The notes below the pieces were generated by a model. It saw nothing but the letters and a program-made list of their open reading frames with translations, did not search any database and was not told the origin of the DNA. Below are positions 18,042-25,157 of a DNA stretch of 27,855 nucleotides, in pieces (the stretch's first letter is position 1; each line of letters begins with the position of its first letter). The position numbers and the translations under genes are program-made. This DNA comes from Chrysochromulina parva (taxonomy: Eukaryota > Haptophyta > Prymnesiales > Chrysochromulinaceae), in contig PJAB01000389.1 in NCBI GenBank assembly GCA_002887195.1, positions 1 to 27,855 of the forward strand. Direction: 5' to 3'.

Positions 18042-18697
18042 GAAGCAACAGGGCGGACACAAAAGATGGCGAGGCGTGCTGTGACGCACTGAGAAGGCGC
18101 GGGCAGGCAGGCAGCGCGGCAGCTTCGGGGCTTTCATGCAGCAGACGACATGGGTAAGCGAAGGGGAGGGAAGGGTTGAATACAGCGCGTACGTCATCAC
18201 TGAGAGGCGCCCGTGCGCACGTAAGCACGGGACTCGCGAACTGTGCTGCGTGCGCCATTACGCTTTGCGTTGGCGAATGGCGTTTGTGTCGACAGCGCGC
18301 TCCTCGTGAGTCGTTTGTTCGGTTGGGTAAAGTTGTCCGCGTTTCCTGTGCAACTGCAAAAATCACAACGTGAAGGACGCGAAAGCGACTGCGCTGTGCA
18401 TGGCATCCGACTCGTTGATGAGCATGAGAGCTACATGTACAAATAGACGTTACACGAAGTTTGATCAACGTGAACGAAGTTACAAACTTACATTCTTCAG
18501 TCTTCGTCCTTATGTGCGGAGACGGATTGGCGGGTGTGGCGTGAAACTGCAACGCCTGAAGGGCGAAGTGGATAACCCTATCCCCCTCGTTATACCGGCG
18601 ATGTCACAGTGTGAACACACAGTGTACAGAGTGGCGCTAGTACCGAGCGCCTCCCTACAGAACCTTCTATTGACGAACCTCAATAGCATCTGGAGCA
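18042..18697. other. Gene-free stretch between CFAP70 and the retroelement, with hairpins at its right end
   Basis: The first part should be the CFAP70 3' UTR. Base composition becomes more AT-rich after about 18350. From about 18600 structure accumulates: CACAGTGT occurs twice (18604 and 18618 areas), hairpin GGCGCT/AGCGCC is at 18633-18651, and hairpin CTATTGA/TCAATAG is at 18667-18686. The latter part may be the left end of the element. No coding frame is convincing. Confidence 0.5.
18633..18686. repeat. Two perfect hairpins just left of the first 75-bp repeat
   Basis: Hairpin 1 pairs 18633-18638 with 18646-18651 (GGCGCT/AGCGCC, 7-nt loop). Hairpin 2 pairs 18667-18673 with 18680-18686 (CTATTGA/TCAATAG, 6-nt loop). 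They end 11 bp before the 75-bp direct repeat starts. Confidence 0.65.
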
Positions 18698-18772
18698 ACC
18701 TCCTTCCCTCAGGAGATTTTCAAGCGTCACGTGGCGATGCGGATCAACCACGATCACGCAACGATCGCTCTC
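18698..18772 (+). repeat. 75-bp direct repeat, copy 1
   Basis: Identical, base for base, to 20806-20880 (offset 2108). It starts ACCTCCTTCCCTCAGGAG and ends GATCGCTCTC; the bases just outside differ. This copy supplies the first codons of the YR frame (ATG at 18737, MRINHDHATIAL). Confidence 0.95.
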
Positions 18773-19765
18773 GTGACGCTTGATGACAGAGAGAACGCAA
18801 ACGAAGACAGGGGCAGACTCCTACGGGCACTGGCCCGAGCACACAGCTCGACGGAGGCGTTGCACCTCGAGCTCGGAGGCAAACCGGGCCTCCGCGCGCA
18901 GATCCAGACCCAGCCTGCTGGGCGGATCGCCACCGCCAACGCGATGGCCGGCTGCGCCACACAGCCGCAAGCGACCCCTACTGCGACGGCCCACAACGTG
19001 GACGACGCGCTGCGACGCGCGCTAACCGCGGCACACAAAGCGGCGTCGCGCGGCAAGGAGACGGGCGGGGCGGCACCCATGATGCCCCCTCGCTTGTCGA
19101 GCGCGATCGCCAAGCCTGCGTACGTTCCGTGGCGCGAACACGCACGGCGGCACATTCCGCCCACCGCTCCGGCGAGGCGGCCCGCTGGCCACTCGACCGG
19201 CCCAAAACTCCTTCTGCTCTGCGACCCGATCAAGCCGCCCGACGGGTTCGTCCTGCGGGTGCGGACCTTGACAGGCCCGGGCGGAGCAAGGGAAGGCGAC
19301 CTGCGCCTCGCGGAGGCGGAGCGCATCGTTCCTATGCTGCCCGAATACGTGTGGCAACACGTGCTCGGCGAGACGGCGGCCAGCCTCGCGGCCTGGCCTG
19401 CCGGCAAGCTGGCTGGCAAGCAGCTCAATGCGATCGCAAACATGGAGGGAGCCAACACGCTCGCCAAATGGCGATGCACTTACGTTCACCTTACCTACTT
19501 CCTACGGGCCGAGTACGGCCGCGGAGACAGAGCCCTCGACCAGCCGGTCGGGGCGTCCGTCCTTCAAGAGTGGCTGGAAGGATGGGAAGAGGATGCGGTG
19601 GCGCTCGCCGCGGCCAAAGCGGTGGCGAAGGGAACACCCATCGAGGATACGGCGGGCGGCCTCACGGCCGCGCCGGCCCGGCTTGGGTGCCTGCGCGCGA
19701 TGCAGCGCCTGCTCGGCCCTCGACGAGGTACGCGTCGTGTACTCCGGCTGCTGCGAAGGCCGTGA
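18737..19765 (+). pseudogene. Tyrosine recombinase gene, N-terminal piece (left of inversion)
   Basis: The frame opens in the 75-bp repeat with ATG at 18737 and runs to a stop at 19765, only 18 nt past the proposed breakpoint at 19747. The first 230 residues are Ala/Arg/Pro-rich with no clear domain. Residues about 230-335 look like a SAM-like core-binding domain of tyrosine recombinases: NTLAKWRCTYVHLTYFLRAE, VLQEWLEGWEEDAVALA, then a last helix PARLGCLRAMQRLLG. The catalytic domain that should follow is on the other strand immediately downstream. Calling it YR is inference from helix pattern plus the C-terminal pieces, not from a single diagnostic motif. Confidence 0.62.
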
Positions 19766-20460
19766 TCATCACACTCTTCAGAGAGTGCATCGTGATCGCC
19801 TCGGCCGCCTCCCGCGTCACGAGATGCGGCGTGACTGCTACCCATGGAGAGTCATGGGCGGGCCGGAGCCCGGGGCGTCCAGGCTGGACGCGTACGTCCG
19901 CCCTGCTCAGCGCACGCAGCGTCGCCACCCATTCGTGGCCCGTGGGCGGGCGGTCGAGCCATCGGGTGGCCCTGTAAGGGTCGCCCTCGGCGCCGTCGTG
20001 GGCGCGCAGCAGGCTCGCTACGCGATTGCCGTAGCCGTCGCGATCGAGCACGGCTTTGGCAGTGTGCCACCACTCGCTCGTGCCCGAGAAGCCTTTTGTG
20101 TGGCATAGGAGGGGCCTCCCCGCCTGTCCCCACTGGTGCTTCTTTAGATCGACGCCGGCCCTGCCGACGCCCATGCAGTTTGCTGCATCCTCGAGCCCCC
20201 CCGAGCGTTCCGCAAGCGCGGTGCGTACGCATACCTGTATCAGGAGGGCGGCCATAGCGTGAGATCCGCGAACGACCTCGCCCCCCATCGGGAGGGCGGA
20301 GATTTTGTGGCTAAAGTCCGCAGCGCCGAGTTCGAAATGTATTGCATGCGCCAGTTCGGGCGTGTGGGCCTGTCGGCCCTCGCGCTTTTGCGGTGCGACG
20401 GCCAGTGGGTCGAGCACCGACGCGTCCGCGCTGATGTGCACCCGGCGCACACGCCGGGAG
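19742..20460. other. 706-bp inverted segment with short inverted arms, splitting the YR gene
   Basis: Left arm CTCCGG is 19742-19747 and right arm CCGGGAG is 20454-20460; they are inverted complements apart from one extra base. The block between them is 19748-20453. Read as 18737-19747, complement of 19748-20453, then 20454-21061, the frame is continuous: join 1 gives CTC CGG | CGT GTG and join 2 gives GCA G | CC GGG AGC. The total is 2325 nt, exactly 775 codons, with the only stop at the end. In the present order each of the three frames stops or opens within about 20 nt of a breakpoint, or runs into antisense. The right arm sits in a perfect hairpin (CCCGGC/GCCGGG, 20441-20458). Confidence 0.8.
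19748..20453 (-). pseudogene. Tyrosine recombinase gene, catalytic middle piece (inverted)
   Basis: Read on the minus strand, this block encodes ELAHAIHFELG, CVRTALAERSGGLEDAANC, a Lys-containing VDLKKHQWGQ, WWHTAKAVLDRDGYGN, YRATRWLDRPPTGHEWVATL and TMHSLKSVMITAFAAAG. HSLK (19776-19787) fits the HxxR/K box of tyrosine recombinases; Arg in CVRTALAERS is a candidate for the first catalytic Arg. The frame stays open beyond 19748 only into antisense of the N-terminal piece. The minus frame is stop-free and protein-like, while the plus frames over the block are Arg-rich shadow. Confidence 0.62.
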
Positions 20461-21061
20461 CACGATGGAACGCCTCTCGCTGGACGCGGCGCGTCAGCAG
20501 GCCGAGTTAGTGAGCTCGACGATCACAACACCGAGCGGGCTACAGACGGCCCGCGGCTATGCGCACAAGGGCCTGGCGGCCAGCCACGCCACCAATGTAT
20601 GCATGGTAACCGGGCTGGCAAGAGCATATCTTGCTGCCGTCGGCACAAGCGCGATCCCACGCGAGGGCGGCTGGCGCGCGCTGGCGGTATGGGTGCAGAG
20701 CCTATGCCACGGAGCCGCAGGGGCTCTGGCAGCGCCGCCGAGGGCTGCCGTCACCGCCGTCCGGGCGCCGGACGCGCTCTGGGTGACGGCGGCGCCTGCG
20801 CAGGTACCTCCTTCCCTCAGGAGATTTTCAAGCGTCACGTGGCGATGCGGATCAACCACGATCACGCAACGATCGCTCTCCCCCCTCCCACCCAGCGACG
20901 AGCCAAGGCCACACGCGCGCCGCAAGGACGGCGCGCCCACGACAGCGCCCGCGCGCGATAAATACGAGCGCACGCACGCACCGCACGGCCAGTGCGGGAC
21001 CGAGACGATGCGCTCGCTTGCGCCCAGATCACCCCCGCCTCAGACGGCGGTCAGTGAGTAA
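20454..21061 (+). pseudogene. Tyrosine recombinase gene, C-terminal piece (right of inversion)
   Basis: A plus frame, open from 20435 and stopping with TAA at 21059-21061, encodes RLSLDAARQQAELVSSTI, TARGYAHKGLAASHATNV and LARAYLAAVG. Its codons end mostly in G or C, as in real genes. Joined to the inverted block it places Y (codon 20558-20560) 43 residues after the Lys of HSLK. That is longer than the usual 30-36 of classic YRs, so this Tyr is a candidate nucleophile, not a certain one. The last 80 or so codons run through the second 75-bp repeat and tandem copy A in frames unlike protein, so the functional end probably lay near 20805. Confidence 0.5.
20806..20880 (+). repeat. 75-bp direct repeat, copy 2
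   Basis: Identical to 18698-18772. Here the YR frame crosses the repeat in a different phase, so the two copies encode different residues. Conservation is therefore of DNA, not protein. The tandem duplication starts 7 bp after its end. Confidence 0.95.
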
Positions 21062-21235
21062 CCACCCAGCGACGAGCTAAGGCCACGCGCGCGCCGCAAC
21101 CAGTACAGCGCGCCCACGACAGCGCCCGCGCGCGATAATACGAGCGCATGCATGCACCGCACGGCCAGTGCGGGGCCGAGACGATGCGCTAGCTCGCGCT
21201 CAGATCACCCCGCCTTAGACGGCGGTCAGTGAGTA
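20888..21235. repeat. Tandem duplication of a 174-175-bp unit
   Basis: Copy A is about 20888-21061 and copy B about 21062-21235. They share CACCCAGCGACGAGC, CCCACGACAGCGCCCGCGCGCGAT, a CACGGCCAGTGCGG palindrome-like core and GACGGCGGTCAGTGAGTA, with scattered substitutions and small indels. Each copy ends in TCAGTGAGTA(A), the sequence holding the YR stop on plus (copy A) and the Gag stop on minus (copy B). Confidence 0.9.
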
Positions 21236-22378
21236 AAGCGGCACGCGGCGCCGCGCGTGCAGCGACCCTGGATGAAGTCGTTGCACTTGTCGCGAACGAC
21301 AAGCGCCCCCGGCGGCCTTCACCGGAGTGCCGTCCTCGTTGAGCGTCTCGACGAGGGCCGCCGAGGTGACGCCCGCGACGGCGCCCGCCGCGACGGCGCC
21401 GACGCGACTTGCGAGCACGTACCGGATGCTCTCGAGCCGATCGACGACCTTCGGATACCAGATATCGCAGGAAGCCGCCTCGCTCCACTGATGCATCTGA
21501 TCCTGGAGCAGCTTCAGCTGCTCCAGGAGCAGCATCGTATCGATATCCTTCAGGCGGTGCAAGGCAAGGATGACCGCCCTGAACAGAGCCGGGTCGCTCG
21601 AGAGCCGAGCCCCCGAGCCGAGGAAAAGGACTGGCTTAGAGACCTGCGCGGCGCACAGGTCCCACGCGAGCAGCCACACCGCCTTCGACCCGATGAGGGA
21701 CGCCGAGGTCGGCTTGGCCGGGTTGTGGGCGAGAACATTCTCCTCCGTCAGGACGGCGTCAAAGGGCGCGTCCTTGTACGAGGGGGGACGCGGCTTGCGC
21801 ACACCCGCGTCCGGCAGCACCGACGAGTGGAAGGCCATCACCGACATGAGGCGGCCGCCCGCGCGATCCCATGGAAAGTCCGGCTTGGCCCTCCCGGTGG
21901 CATAGCCGGCGGCGAGGATGCCCGCCACCTCGGCCTCGTTGAGCGTGCGAGCACGCGCCGTAAGCTTGTCTGCCGCAGCCGAGCCTCCGATCGCATCGGC
22001 AATCGTCTGCGGCGTGAGATTCCCGCCTGGCGCAAGACGGGCCAGCTCGTTACGAGCCGCACGGTGGAGGCGCATCAGCGGATGGAGGATCTCCTCCGCG
22101 CAGTCATCCTCCGAGCCGGTCAGGCCGGCGAGGCCACCGAGCCCAGGGATGCCTGCGACGGCAGCCTGGGCAGCCACCGCAGCGGTGACGACTACGCCGG
22201 CGCCGTTGCGAACCTCAGCGACGGCGACGACGGCGACGGCCGGGGCGACCCCGTTGCGGACGCCGATCAGGAGCTTCGCGTACGTGAGCGGCGACTTGGC
22301 AAACTCGCCAAAGTTCATGTCGACGAGGTGCTCCACATTGAGACCATCGCACTTCGCCGAATCGCCGGCGTGCTCCAT
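21226..22378 (-). CDS. Gag-like protein with C-terminal CCCH zinc finger (one frameshift)
   Basis: The start ATG at 22378 is followed by DSAKCDGLNVEHLVDMNFGEF. The frame runs through an Ala/Val-rich segment, a helical part (LLLEQLKLLQDQMHQWSEAAS, DIWYPKVVDRLESIRYVLAS) and TLNEDGTPVKAAGG. Just after that the zinc finger lies in another frame: CNDFIQGRCTRGAACRFTH, spacing C-X7-C-X5-C-X3-H, followed at once by TGA (21228-21226). The switch falls at a run of five C on plus (21306-21310). One base fewer there gives 383 residues ending in the finger; as it stands the frame misses the finger and stops further on. CCCH or CCHC fingers at the end of a basic structural protein are the usual mark of Gag, which packages the element RNA. 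It is divergent from RT and convergent with YR. Confidence 0.65.
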
Positions 22379-22509
22379 GGCCGCGATGAGGCCCCAACCT
22401 CGAACGCACTCGGCGGGCACTCATCGCCGAGTGGCAAGCGATTGCCGAGAGCCTTCGGCCGCTATCAAAGCAGCTCGCGTGCACTGGGCCAGCCTATACG
22501 AAGGTGATC
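22379..22509. promoter_or_regulatory. Region between divergent Gag and RT starts
   Basis: Only 131 bp separate the Gag ATG (22378, minus) from the first RT ATG (22510, plus), so an internal bidirectional promoter is expected if both are read from DNA in this form. The RT frame is already open from 22390 and reads like coding sequence (RRALIAEWQAIAESLRPLSK), so part of this region may be RT coding sequence with a non-ATG or lost start. Confidence 0.45.
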
Positions 22510-24606
22510 ATGAAAGAGGCAAATCTCCTCATGGTCGCCGCATGCATCGAGGTGCTGGAGTGGCCGGACGTTTGGCTTGCTCACGACCTTCACTTTGGCA
22601 TGCATGCAGCCGGGAATCGCTCCGAAAGGGAGCCCGGGATGCGCGACACCGGGGTGTTCAGGGCGCACGCGCGACCTGCGGCGTACTCCCTCGCCGACCT
22701 TTGCGCCGGCAACGCCCGGCCACTGATAGCCAGGCTGGCCGAGTACGGCGGCCACAAAATCTGGCTGCATGAGCCAGGCCCGGCCCTCATGTCATCGGCG
22801 GCGTGGTTCGACCACCTGCTGCAGCTATGCAAGAAAAGGGCCGTAAAGGCCCTGGACAAGGCCGGGGTAAGCGCGGCCGAGATGGCCGCCGCCGCAGCGC
22901 AAGCGACCAACTCCCGCAACCCGAGCGACGCCCTGTGGCTCGGCATCCGGGCGCGATGCTCGACCGATCAGCTGGATGGACTCAACAAGATGTGGCTTGC
23001 TGAGACCATGTCGCACAAGGAGGTGCGAGCGGGCACGATGCTCGTGCCCATGACACCGCGCCAGTTCACGGCGTGGGCCGACGCTCAGTGTGGCGGAGTG
23101 CGTCACACAAGACCGGCACCCCGCTACGTCATTGAGCAGGGCCTCAAGGAGGACGGCTCGCAGCGACTGCGTTGCATCGACGACGACCGTGTCACCGGCG
23201 TCAACGACGCAACCGGCGAAGTAGAATCGCCCGACCTTATCTCGCCCGTATGGGTCGTGATGATCGTGGTGGCCATCGCAGCCCGATGCATGGCCGCCGG
23301 CGTCGCGATGACAAGGTGCATCGTGGCGCTCGATGATATGAAACACGCCTTCCGGACTATGCCGCAGCGCATCCAGGAGGTGAGCACCGTGGCGTACTAC
23401 TCCTTCGCGAAGGGTACCGCCGTGTTTCAGCAGATCCCCGGCCACAGCTTCGGCAAGCGCGCCTCCCCGCTGAACTTCAGTCGCCTGCCTCGGCTGATAT
23501 GTCACGCTGCAGCATGCTTCCTGCTGGTGCTGGCGGCCCATTATGTCGACGATTTCCCGAGCGTGGACGTCAAGGCCGGCGGCCCGATGTCCTCGCAGGA
23601 AGCCCTGCAAGCCGTCTTCATCGCCTTCGGGTGGAATGTCGAGCTCGGCAAGCGCAAAGTCGGCAAGCTCGCGAACATCGTCCTCGGAGTGTTGGTGAGC
23701 CTCGCACGCATCCTAACTGACGGCGTCGCCGTCGTGTCGCCGGTCAGGACCAAAGTCGAAGCCGTCCTGGCCGACCTGCGGAAATGCAAAGCCAGAGGCA
23801 AGCTATCCTCCGGCGAAGCCTCATCCTTCTGGGGCAGGCTTGGCTGGCTCAGCTCGTCGACGTACGGGCGCATCGGCCGCGCCGCCACGCAGTGCCTCAT
23901 GCAACGGTCGCATGAGGAAGCAAAGGACTGGAATGACCAGCTCGACGCGATGCTCGAGTTCCTAACCGCCGTCCTAGCCGAGGGCGTCCTGCCCCCCCTC
24001 GAATTCAGCATGACACCGGGGCGGAAGGCCCCCGTGATTGTCTACACTGATGCCTCCTTCCGCTGGCTCCAGGAACCAGGCAAGGAAAGAGTCCCTGTGG
24101 CGATCCTCGGATTCTACGTCGTCGACCGGGTGACCGGCGTGGAGCTGATCTCTGGGATGATGGTCCCGCCTTTCTTCTTCGCCTTTCTCTCGACCGACCT
24201 CGAGACGTACATATCACAGATGGAGCTCGTGGCTGCCATCGCGGTCTATTACACCCTACCGGCGCTGCTCGCCGGCCGGGCGGTGATACACTTTATCGAT
24301 AACTTCGCGGCGCTATCCGCGCTGGTTCACGGGTACGCTTCCAAGCCTGACCTTGCCCGCCTCGTTAACTTATTCCACGCGCAGATGGCTGCCCTTCGGT
24401 GCCTGTTTTACGGCGACTGGGTGCCGTCGAAGGCCAACCCAGCGGACGTCCCGACGAGGGCGGAGCGCGCGCACGAGGTGCCACCCTCGGCCACATGGGT
24501 GCAAATGGTACTCCCCGCCCTGGAGGCGGTAGAGCGCGACGTAGGCGCGTGGATCCGCGAGGTCCGCGCCCACGTGACTGAGTCCAGGGCCGCTCACAGC
24601 GACTGA
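22510..24606 (+). CDS. Reverse transcriptase-RNase H of a DIRS-type (YR) retrotransposon
   Basis: 698 aa from the ATG at 22510; a GTG at 22504 and an open, ATG-less frame from 22390 precede it. The N-terminal 200 residues are element-specific. RT motifs are RLRCIDDDRVTG (fingers), the Asp-containing CIVALDDMKHAF (motif A), QIPGHSFGKRASPLNFSRL (motif B region) and HYVDDF with the catalytic Asp pair (codons from 23542), then GKRKVGKLANIVLGV. RNase H follows: VIVYTDASF (first Asp, about 24048), ISQMELVAAIAVYY (Glu), VIHFIDNFAAL (Asp) and KANPADVPTR (last Asp). All expected acidic residues are present. The IDDD and YVDDF style matches RTs abundant in haptophyte and dinoflagellate genomes. No protease, aspartic or DDE domain is fused. 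It would copy element RNA to DNA and remove RNA, with YR doing integration. It is the only intact gene of this element. Confidence 0.88.
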   Translation: MKEANLLMVAACIEVLEWPDVWLAHDLHFGMHAAGNRSEREPGMRDTGVFRAHARPAAYSLADLCAGNARPLIARLAEYGGHKIWLHEPGPALMSSAAWFDHLLQLCKKRAVKALDKAGVSAAEMAAAAAQATNSRNPSDALWLGIRARCSTDQLDGLNKMWLAETMSHKEVRAGTMLVPMTPRQFTAWADAQCGGVRHTRPAPRYVIEQGLKEDGSQRLRCIDDDRVTGVNDATGEVESPDLISPVWVVMIVVAIAARCMAAGVAMTRCIVALDDMKHAFRTMPQRIQEVSTVAYYSFAKGTAVFQQIPGHSFGKRASPLNFSRLPRLICHAAACFLLVLAAHYVDDFPSVDVKAGGPMSSQEALQAVFIAFGWNVELGKRKVGKLANIVLGVLVSLARILTDGVAVVSPVRTKVEAVLADLRKCKARGKLSSGEASSFWGRLGWLSSSTYGRIGRAATQCLMQRSHEEAKDWNDQLDAMLEFLTAVLAEGVLPPLEFSMTPGRKAPVIVYTDASFRWLQEPGKERVPVAILGFYVVDRVTGVELISGMMVPPFFFAFLSTDLETYISQMELVAAIAVYYTLPALLAGRAVIHFIDNFAALSALVHGYASKPDLARLVNLFHAQMAALRCLFYGDWVPSKANPADVPTRAERAHEVPPSATWVQMVLPALEAVERDVGAWIREVRAHVTESRAAHSD

Positions 24607-25157
24607 GCGGCAAGAGAGAGCGCGCGCGGCGCGCGACATGCGCATACAGCATAGGCGGGTGGCGTCGTGCTCTGGTGGACTCGGCGGTCTGAGTCCGCCG
24701 CACCACGCGCCTATACCCTGTCGAGCGTCCCTGGACGGGAGAAGGGACTAGCGCTAATAGCGTTATGCTCCCGGTCCCGGACACGGGACCTCACCTACCC
24801 AATGGTCCGCACTCCCAAAAGGAAGTGCTAACCCGACGGGCATCTTAATGACCGATCCAGTACGTACCGTACCACCCCTGTGTCCCGAGTGTGACACAGC
24901 AGCAGAGCGGCGCGCGAAAAGCGCGACGAAACCCATAGTGGATTATACAACTTTCGCACGCACAGGAGTTGTAAACCGAACGGACCAGGCCCACGTTCAC
25001 GTATTTTTGATAATAGTGGGGTGTGAAACCCTTCATGTACCATGTTGAACCTGCTAATGTACAAACGCAGGTCCGCCTTTTAAGGTTCGGAAGTGGCCCG
25101 GCGACGTCGTCGCCCGCTCGAGCACGACGCAAAAGGGCGAAGTCCATTTTGCTCGGA
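24607..25157. other. Gene-free stretch between the RT gene and NOG1, structured in its left half
   Basis: The left part (24607-24840) carries several hairpins, listed separately, and is likely the 3' end of the element. The right part (about 24840-25157) is less GC-rich and should hold the NOG1 promoter and 5' UTR. The NOG1 frame is open back to 25023 but without the conserved N-terminus there. No tRNA fits. Confidence 0.5.
24682..24836. repeat. Cluster of hairpins downstream of the RT gene
   Basis: Four inverted repeats lie within about 155 bp: GGTGGACTC with GAGTCCGCC (one G-T pair, 8-nt loop, near 24682-24708); AGCGCTAATAGCGTT around 24750; GGTCCCG-GACA-CGGGACC (near 24772-24790); and GCACTCCC-AAAA-GGAAGTGC (near 24808-24828, one mismatch). 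Such density suggests a folded RNA end or recombination site. I could not fit it to a hammerhead or HDV-type ribozyme by eye. Confidence 0.55.

What the first reader, a model, noticed from the sequence alone, without database searches (positions are those of the whole stretch)
19742..20460. A 706-bp inversion between short CCGG-type arms breaks a recombinase gene; flipping it restores a 775-codon frame
Three separate frames (plus 18737-19765, minus 20453-19748, plus 20454-21061) meet at 19747/19748 and 20453/20454. Reversing 19748-20453 joins them in frame at both ends with no internal stop, and the order becomes core-binding domain, catalytic boxes with HSLK, C-terminal piece, as in a tyrosine recombinase. 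The breakpoints coincide with inverted arms CTCCGG and CCGGGAG, and the right one with a perfect hairpin. Such a switch could be a one-time rearrangement, an assembly error, or a reversible ON/OFF inversion, perhaps made by a related recombinase. The last would be a self-controlling retrotransposon, analogous to bacterial invertible genes; that part is speculation.
Basis: partly seen in the sequence, partly recalled or inferred. Interest (0 to 1): 0.92.

Follow-up and report, generated by a model that had tools for sequence, protein, structure and literature searches.

The report
Back-to-front block breaks retroelement recombinase-like gene
In one copy of a likely retrotransposon, a 0.7-kilobase block in the middle of a gene that likely encodes a recombinase lies back to front compared with a related gene elsewhere, splitting the gene into three pieces; this is likely a recent one-time accident, because the block's ends lack the matching sites that a reversible on/off switch would need.

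Summary
The inversion is in the assembled sequence and is derived. One unbroken 754-aa metagenome protein (P0003) matches, in order, the first plus piece, the minus-strand middle block and the last plus piece. Middle and last piece are contiguous in 4 of 4 homologues that reach that junction; the first junction is shown significantly by P0003 alone (1 of 8 homologues). Codon-position composition agrees on the strands. The CTCCGG/CCGGGAG arms then do not flank the block and are chance level; frame restoration alone is weak, since 925 of 2774 nearby pairs achieve it. No other copy of the gene was found in the assembly. Best reading: a recent, loss-free, one-time inversion that broke a recombinase-like gene; a reversible switch is unsupported, and untestable without reads. 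The recombinase label is itself inferred: no Pfam match, unusable structure models, but part of the active-site spacing equals XerD's, with Ser/Thr where the catalytic Tyr should be.

The parts
18513..24971 (.). whole element, about 6.46 kb, likely a retrotransposon
   Evidence: left terminus shared with contigs C1040, C362, C1962, C746, C2188, right terminus with C565 (C769 stops 12 bp earlier); flanks differ
18737..19718 (+). first piece of the recombinase-like gene
   Evidence: 87% identical to P0007 over 187 aa, 62% to P0006 over 299 aa, 36% to P0003 over 170 aa; end
19719..20440 (-). inverted block, about 722 bp: middle of the same gene, coding on the minus strand
   Evidence: 46% identical to P0003 residues 347-579 (E 7.4e-53); GC by codon position; ends
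20441..20755 (+). last piece of the gene, the part with homologues (the frame stays open to 21061)
   Evidence: 32% identical to P0003 residues 572-700 (E 3.5e-5)
19715..19724 (.). left breakpoint zone, best at 19718/19719
   Evidence: ten best pairs
20434..20443 (.). right breakpoint zone, best at 20440/20441
   Evidence: ten best pairs
20441..20458 (.). perfect hairpin, 7-bp stem and 4-nt loop, beginning at the right breakpoint
18698..18772 (+). direct repeat copy A1, 75 bp
   Evidence: identical to A2
20806..20880 (+). direct repeat copy A2, 75 bp
   Evidence: identical to A1
20888..21236 (+). tandem repeat B1 (20888-21061) and B2 (21062-21236)
   Evidence: 161 of 177 alignment columns identical
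21215..22420 (-). 401-aa ORF of unknown function; Gag-like only by guess from its place
   Evidence: open frame, codon-position GC favours the minus strand; no Pfam match
22504..24606 (+). 700-aa ORF with reverse transcriptase and RNase H motifs recognised by eye (recalled motifs)
   Evidence: no Pfam or PDB match

Best explanation
Inside a likely retrotransposon, a block of about 722 bp (near 19719-20440) lies inverted relative to a homologous gene and splits one predicted recombinase gene into three frames on two strands, likely through a recent one-time, loss-free inversion rather than a programmed switch. Shown: the three pieces, their order in an unbroken homologue, and the lack of inverted sites above chance at the best-scoring ends. 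Inferred: that the protein has the tyrosine-recombinase fold, that this copy no longer makes it whole, and that the event was breakage and end-joining or template switching, in the chromosome or while the element's DNA copy was being made. The copy would then be dead or dependent on relatives for integration.
For: Order in P0003; middle and last piece contiguous in P0001, P0003, P0004 and P0005; none of the 8 homologues shows the window's arrangement. Coding strand by codon-position GC is plus, minus, plus; AT skew is negative in the three windows covering 19500-20499 and positive in the windows on either side. Both joins in frame at the best pair, with little or nothing lost or gained. No inverted arms above chance at the best pair. 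No stop in 673 codons of the three pieces, so the break is recent if the gene is free of selection since then: about 1-2% neutral substitutions per site with assumed indel rates, at most 5.6% from nonsense changes alone. A1 and A2 are identical over 75 bp.
Against: No reads could be examined, so an artefact or a mixed population is not excluded. The first junction (first piece to middle) is significant in one homologue only, P0003; P0001 does not match the first piece significantly (E 0.24), and the tail of P0007 that resembles the start of the middle is not significant alone. One near-best pair (19724/20434) has an 8-base inverted run nearby, seen in 1.5% of random pairs, six pairs tested. 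Loss-free exchange is also what a recombinase would give. AT skew is also negative elsewhere in the element, e.g. 24000-24499. B1 and B2 differ at 16 of 177 columns, so not every repeat points to a recent insertion.
Confidence: 0.7

Rival explanations
1. The element's own or a related recombinase cut and rejoined two poorly matched sites inside the gene, during or after integration: a one-time, self-inflicted conservative inversion.
For: The inversion seems loss-free; the broken gene likely encodes a recombinase; an archaeal tyrosine recombinase catalyses low-specificity inversions, though on matching segments of about 104 bp (PMC5495485, abstract).
Against: No matching pair of sites above chance at the best-scoring ends; HxxR and the canonical Tyr are absent in 5 of 5 members examined.
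Confidence: 0.14
2. Assembly or chimeric-read artefact: the real locus has the block in the other orientation.
For: The assembly is fragmented (2199 contigs) and other copies of the element stop at contig ends; only one copy of the gene is assembled.
Against: The contig has no N and no long inverted repeat at the best-scoring ends that would mislead an assembler; the block is single-copy in the assembly.
Confidence: 0.1
3. A reversible ON/OFF inversion switch of the recombinase gene.
For: Both joins are in frame and the pieces have stayed free of stops, as expected if the gene is still used in the other orientation.
Against: One third of nearby pairs are in frame anyway. No second orientation was found in the assembly. 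None of the 8 homologues is inverted.
Confidence: 0.04

Closest known systems
PAT-type retrotransposons with an inverted recombinase domain: Kangaroo of Volvox and an element of Daphnia pulex (PMC4157794, passages read)
   Same: a retroelement in which recombinase coding sequence is reversed relative to the rest
   Different: there the whole domain is turned as an established family state; here only the middle of one gene is turned, which breaks it, while homologues are unbroken
Ngaro retrotransposons (PMC8547959 and PMC3783388, passages read)
   Same: length of about 6 kb, likely RT-RNase H and recombinase-like genes, direct repeats
   Different: repeat order here is A1 - gene - A2 - B1 - B2 with no B copy found at the right end; PF00589, reported to detect Ngaro and DIRS recombinases, does not match
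Bacterial invertible switches such as the fim switch (recalled)
   Same: a reversed block at a gene, with both joins in frame here
   Different: no inverted recombination sites above chance at the best-scoring ends and no second orientation seen
Inversions made by the pTN3 integrase in Thermococcus (PMC5495485, abstract and outline read)
   Same: a mobile element's recombinase as possible cause of inversions outside its normal sites
   Different: there matching segments of about 104 bp recombine; here only a few bases match at the ends

Membership tests
tyrosine recombinase | match to the profile PF00589 | tested here: not met
   no match for the three pieces (E up to 10), for 4 homologues or anywhere in the genome (E up to 1; controls 14 of 14 positive)
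tyrosine recombinase | His of box II with His/Trp at +26 | tested here: met
   His, then Trp at +26 in 4 of 4 homologues and His at +26 in the window, counted across its two pieces; XerD has His at +26
tyrosine recombinase | HxxR and catalytic Tyr at +35 | tested here: not met
   HxxK, and Ser or Thr at +35, in 5 of 5; other Tyr are conserved at +66, +89 and +95 in 4 of 4 homologues, two Tyr in the window at +62 and +85
tyrosine recombinase | box I Arg and Lys at XerD-like spacing | tested here: inconclusive
   Arg to Lys +27/+28 (XerD +24), but Arg to His 136 in two homologues and 146 in the window against 96 in XerD
tyrosine recombinase | fold | tested here: inconclusive
   AlphaFold mean pLDDT 32.5 and 36.8, unusable; no fold search was run
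YR retrotransposon (Ngaro, PAT, DIRS) | reverse transcriptase and RNase H gene | tested here: inconclusive
   motifs by eye in 22504-24606; no Pfam or PDB match
YR retrotransposon (Ngaro, PAT) | split direct repeats with a copy of B at the right end | tested here: not met
   A1, A2, B1 and B2 found, but B1 and B2 stand in tandem and no B copy is found at the right end (repeats with indels may be missed)
invertible DNA switch | inverted recombination sites at both ends | tested here: not met
   longest inverted run 5 bases at the best pair, chance level; 7 and 8 bases at two near-best pairs, lying inside the block for the 8-base one
invertible DNA switch | both orientations present in a population | not testable with these tools
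   no reads; one orientation in the assembly

The most novel reading that the evidence does not exclude
A retrotransposon of an unnamed eukaryote carries a recombinase of a new type (HxxK, Trp/His at +26, Ser/Thr in place of the catalytic Tyr) that flips a block inside its own gene and so shuts itself off, possibly reversibly: self-limitation by DNA inversion in a eukaryotic element.
Probability: 0.05. Interest if true: 0.9.

Novelty: new variant of a known kind. Interest (0 to 1): 0.4.

Why it matters
Reversed recombinase domains arose more than once among recombinase-type retrotransposons (PMC4157794, passages); in what I read I saw no account of how such reversals begin. This copy would be an almost base-resolved example of a recent inversion inside the gene. 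It also points to a family of recombinase-like proteins without a profile match and without Tyr at the canonical position in the five members examined, which would be worth an enzymology test. If reads showed both orientations, it would be a self-switching eukaryotic element.

Tried and rejected
Rejected: breakpoints at 19747/19748 and 20453/20454. Rejected: the CTCCGG/CCGGGAG arms as recombination sites; the region 18839-20805 holds 1228 exact inverted 6-mer pairs. Rejected: the middle block being native on the other strand or unrelated to the gene. Considered and dropped: the 8-base inverted pair inside both ends of the block (19730-19737, and 20418-20425, read), because an end there would put a stop codon into the last frame, which opens only at 20435.

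Led nowhere: four viral-contig scans; NCBIfam and PHROGs scans of the pieces; PDB sequence searches (best E 0.33, 0.57 and none); two structure predictions. Searches of the own genome gave no second copy of the gene, only fragments of element ends or short matches. Short junction-only protein tests had no power except the last: P0007 tail 125 of 300, P0001 1-30 55 of 300, P0001 247-263 205 of 300, P0001 263-300 216 of 300 and P0003 572-624 0 of 300 shuffled queries reached the best score; in the first four the best-scoring place was not the YR region. Rows left out: the first window piece was misaligned and left out of the alignments used for structure, as were P0002, P0006, P0007 and P0008.

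Literature: searches (15 of 18 listed; 15 of 49; 12 of 72; 5 of 5; 5 of 5; 1 of 1; 6 of 6), open-licence PMC only. I saw no paper in those listings whose title or abstract start names an invertible or internally inverted recombinase gene in such retrotransposons; unlisted papers and subscription journals were not seen. Read: passages of PMC4157794, PMC8547959, PMC3783388 and PMC3266345; abstract and outline of PMC5495485; the rest as search listings only.

Full report
Observation.

Is the middle block inverted? Three protein searches returned eight homologous proteins. P0003 (754 aa, one frame) aligns with the first plus piece at its residues 168-337, with the minus-strand middle at 347-579 and with the last plus piece at 572-700. 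Searched against the whole genome at E up to 0.1 it matches only three stretches, all in C389: plus 19193-19771 (E 8.5e-16), minus 19695-20435 (E 7.4e-53) and plus 20435-20794 (E 3.5e-5). P0001, P0003, P0004 and P0005 carry middle and last piece contiguously, 4 of 4 that reach that junction. For the first junction the evidence is thinner: P0003 alone is significant; P0001 has no significant match to the first piece; P0007, 87% identical to the first piece over 187 aa, runs on into LDPFAVAP, which resembles the start of the middle block, but that tail is not significant alone. P0002 (68% identical over 120 aa of the middle) stops aligning after the HSLK region, and P0006 and P0008 leave the homology before the first junction. 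None of the 8 shows the window's arrangement.

Composition agrees. GC by codon position gives plus, minus, plus as the likely coding strands of the three pieces. AT skew is negative in the windows covering 19500-20499 and positive on both sides, though it is negative elsewhere in the element too, e.g. 24000-24499. I take the inversion as real in the assembled sequence and as derived.

Where are the ends? Each piece was scored apart against homologues (P0001, P0003, P0007 for the first junction; P0001, P0003, P0004, P0005 for the second) and the scores were added for every in-frame pair of breakpoints. The best pair is 19718/20440; the ten best run from 19715/20443 to 19724/20434. The homologues share a stretch (ILAEPGAWAGSK in P0003) whose left part is matched by the minus frame down to about 19719 and whose right part is matched by the plus frame from 20441. 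The block is thus about 722 bp, with little or nothing lost or gained, as far as protein alignments can tell.

Arms. Of six pairs tested, one near-best pair has a run of 7 (5.7% of random pairs reach it) and one of 8 (1.5%); the 8-base one lies inside the block at both sides. CTCCGG is inside the refined block and CCGGGAG outside. A perfect hairpin with a 7-bp stem begins at 20441, at the right breakpoint; it is one of 19 listed of that class in the element, some overlapping. So no recombination site is visible at the best-scoring ends; a hairpin-prompted break or template switch is possible but not shown.

What the element is. Its left terminus at 18513 is shared, with different flanks, by contigs C1040, C362, C1962, C746 and C2188 (shorter fragments on C2185 and C239), its right terminus near 24971 by C565, while C769 stops 12 bp earlier. 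Five of these contigs (C1040, C362, C1962, C565, C769) end about 120 bp inside the element, as expected when a short-read assembly meets a multicopy repeat (inferred). The window's copy is 80-91% identical to those end fragments, and it is the one copy of the gene found assembled. It carries a 700-aa ORF with reverse transcriptase and RNase H motifs recognised by eye (no Pfam or PDB match), a 401-aa ORF of unknown function on the opposite strand, the broken recombinase-like gene, an identical 75-bp direct repeat pair and a tandem B repeat. This resembles, without matching, the layout of Ngaro and PAT retrotransposons (passages).

Is the gene a tyrosine recombinase? By profile, no: PF00589 is absent from the pieces, the four homologues scanned and the whole genome, although it is reported to detect Ngaro and DIRS recombinases. 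By fold, unknown: both models are unusable. By spacing, partly: from the conserved His, Lys at +3 and Trp (homologues) or His (window) at +26 fall where XerD has Arg and His, checked on the E. coli K-12 sequence. Against: +35, the XerD catalytic Tyr, is Ser or Thr in 5 of 5, and box I Arg lies 136-146 residues before the His, against 96 in XerD. Either the nucleophile lies elsewhere, or the family works differently or not as a recombinase at all.

How it likely came about. The pieces carry no stop in 673 codons. If the gene has been free of selection since the inversion, that bounds its age to about 0.8-1.9% neutral substitutions per site with assumed indel rates of 5-15% of substitutions, and to 5.6% from nonsense changes alone. 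A1 and A2 are identical, which suits a recent insertion; B1 and B2 match at only 161 of 177 columns. I read the event as a recent one-time inversion by end-joining or template switching, in the chromosome or during copying of the element; a one-time reaction by the element's own or a related recombinase comes second, an assembly artefact third, a reversible switch last. None of these was tested with reads or at the bench.

Noticed in passing
20441-20478 (+), with homologues P0001, P0003, P0004, P0005: At the place of the catalytic Tyr of XerD (+35 from the box II His) the window and the four homologues have Ser or Thr, although the Trp/His at +26 is kept.
   Followed up: partly
18698-18772 and 20806-20880: Identical 75-bp direct repeats around the recombinase-like gene, the second followed at once by the tandem B repeat; the order differs from the A1-ORFs-B1-A2-B2 order described for Ngaro.
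   Followed up: partly
21215-22420 (-): A 401-aa ORF on the strand opposite to the reverse transcriptase-like ORF, with coding-like codon-position GC; perhaps a second strand reversal in this element or its natural layout.
   Followed up: no
L013 4396-4860 (C740) and C88:20830-20997: Short relatives of the RNase H-like part (36% over 80 residues) and of the 401-aa ORF (45% over 56 residues, with one TAG) elsewhere in the genome, likely remnants.
   Followed up: no
L012 1300-1905 (C746): An ORF that by eye looks like a fucoxanthin-chlorophyll light-harvesting protein lies close to another copy of the element's left end, which suggests an algal host (label recalled).
   Followed up: no
P0006 and P0008: Both metagenome relatives of the first piece leave the homology at the same place and continue with the same unrelated tail, perhaps a frameshift common to that lineage.
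   Followed up: no
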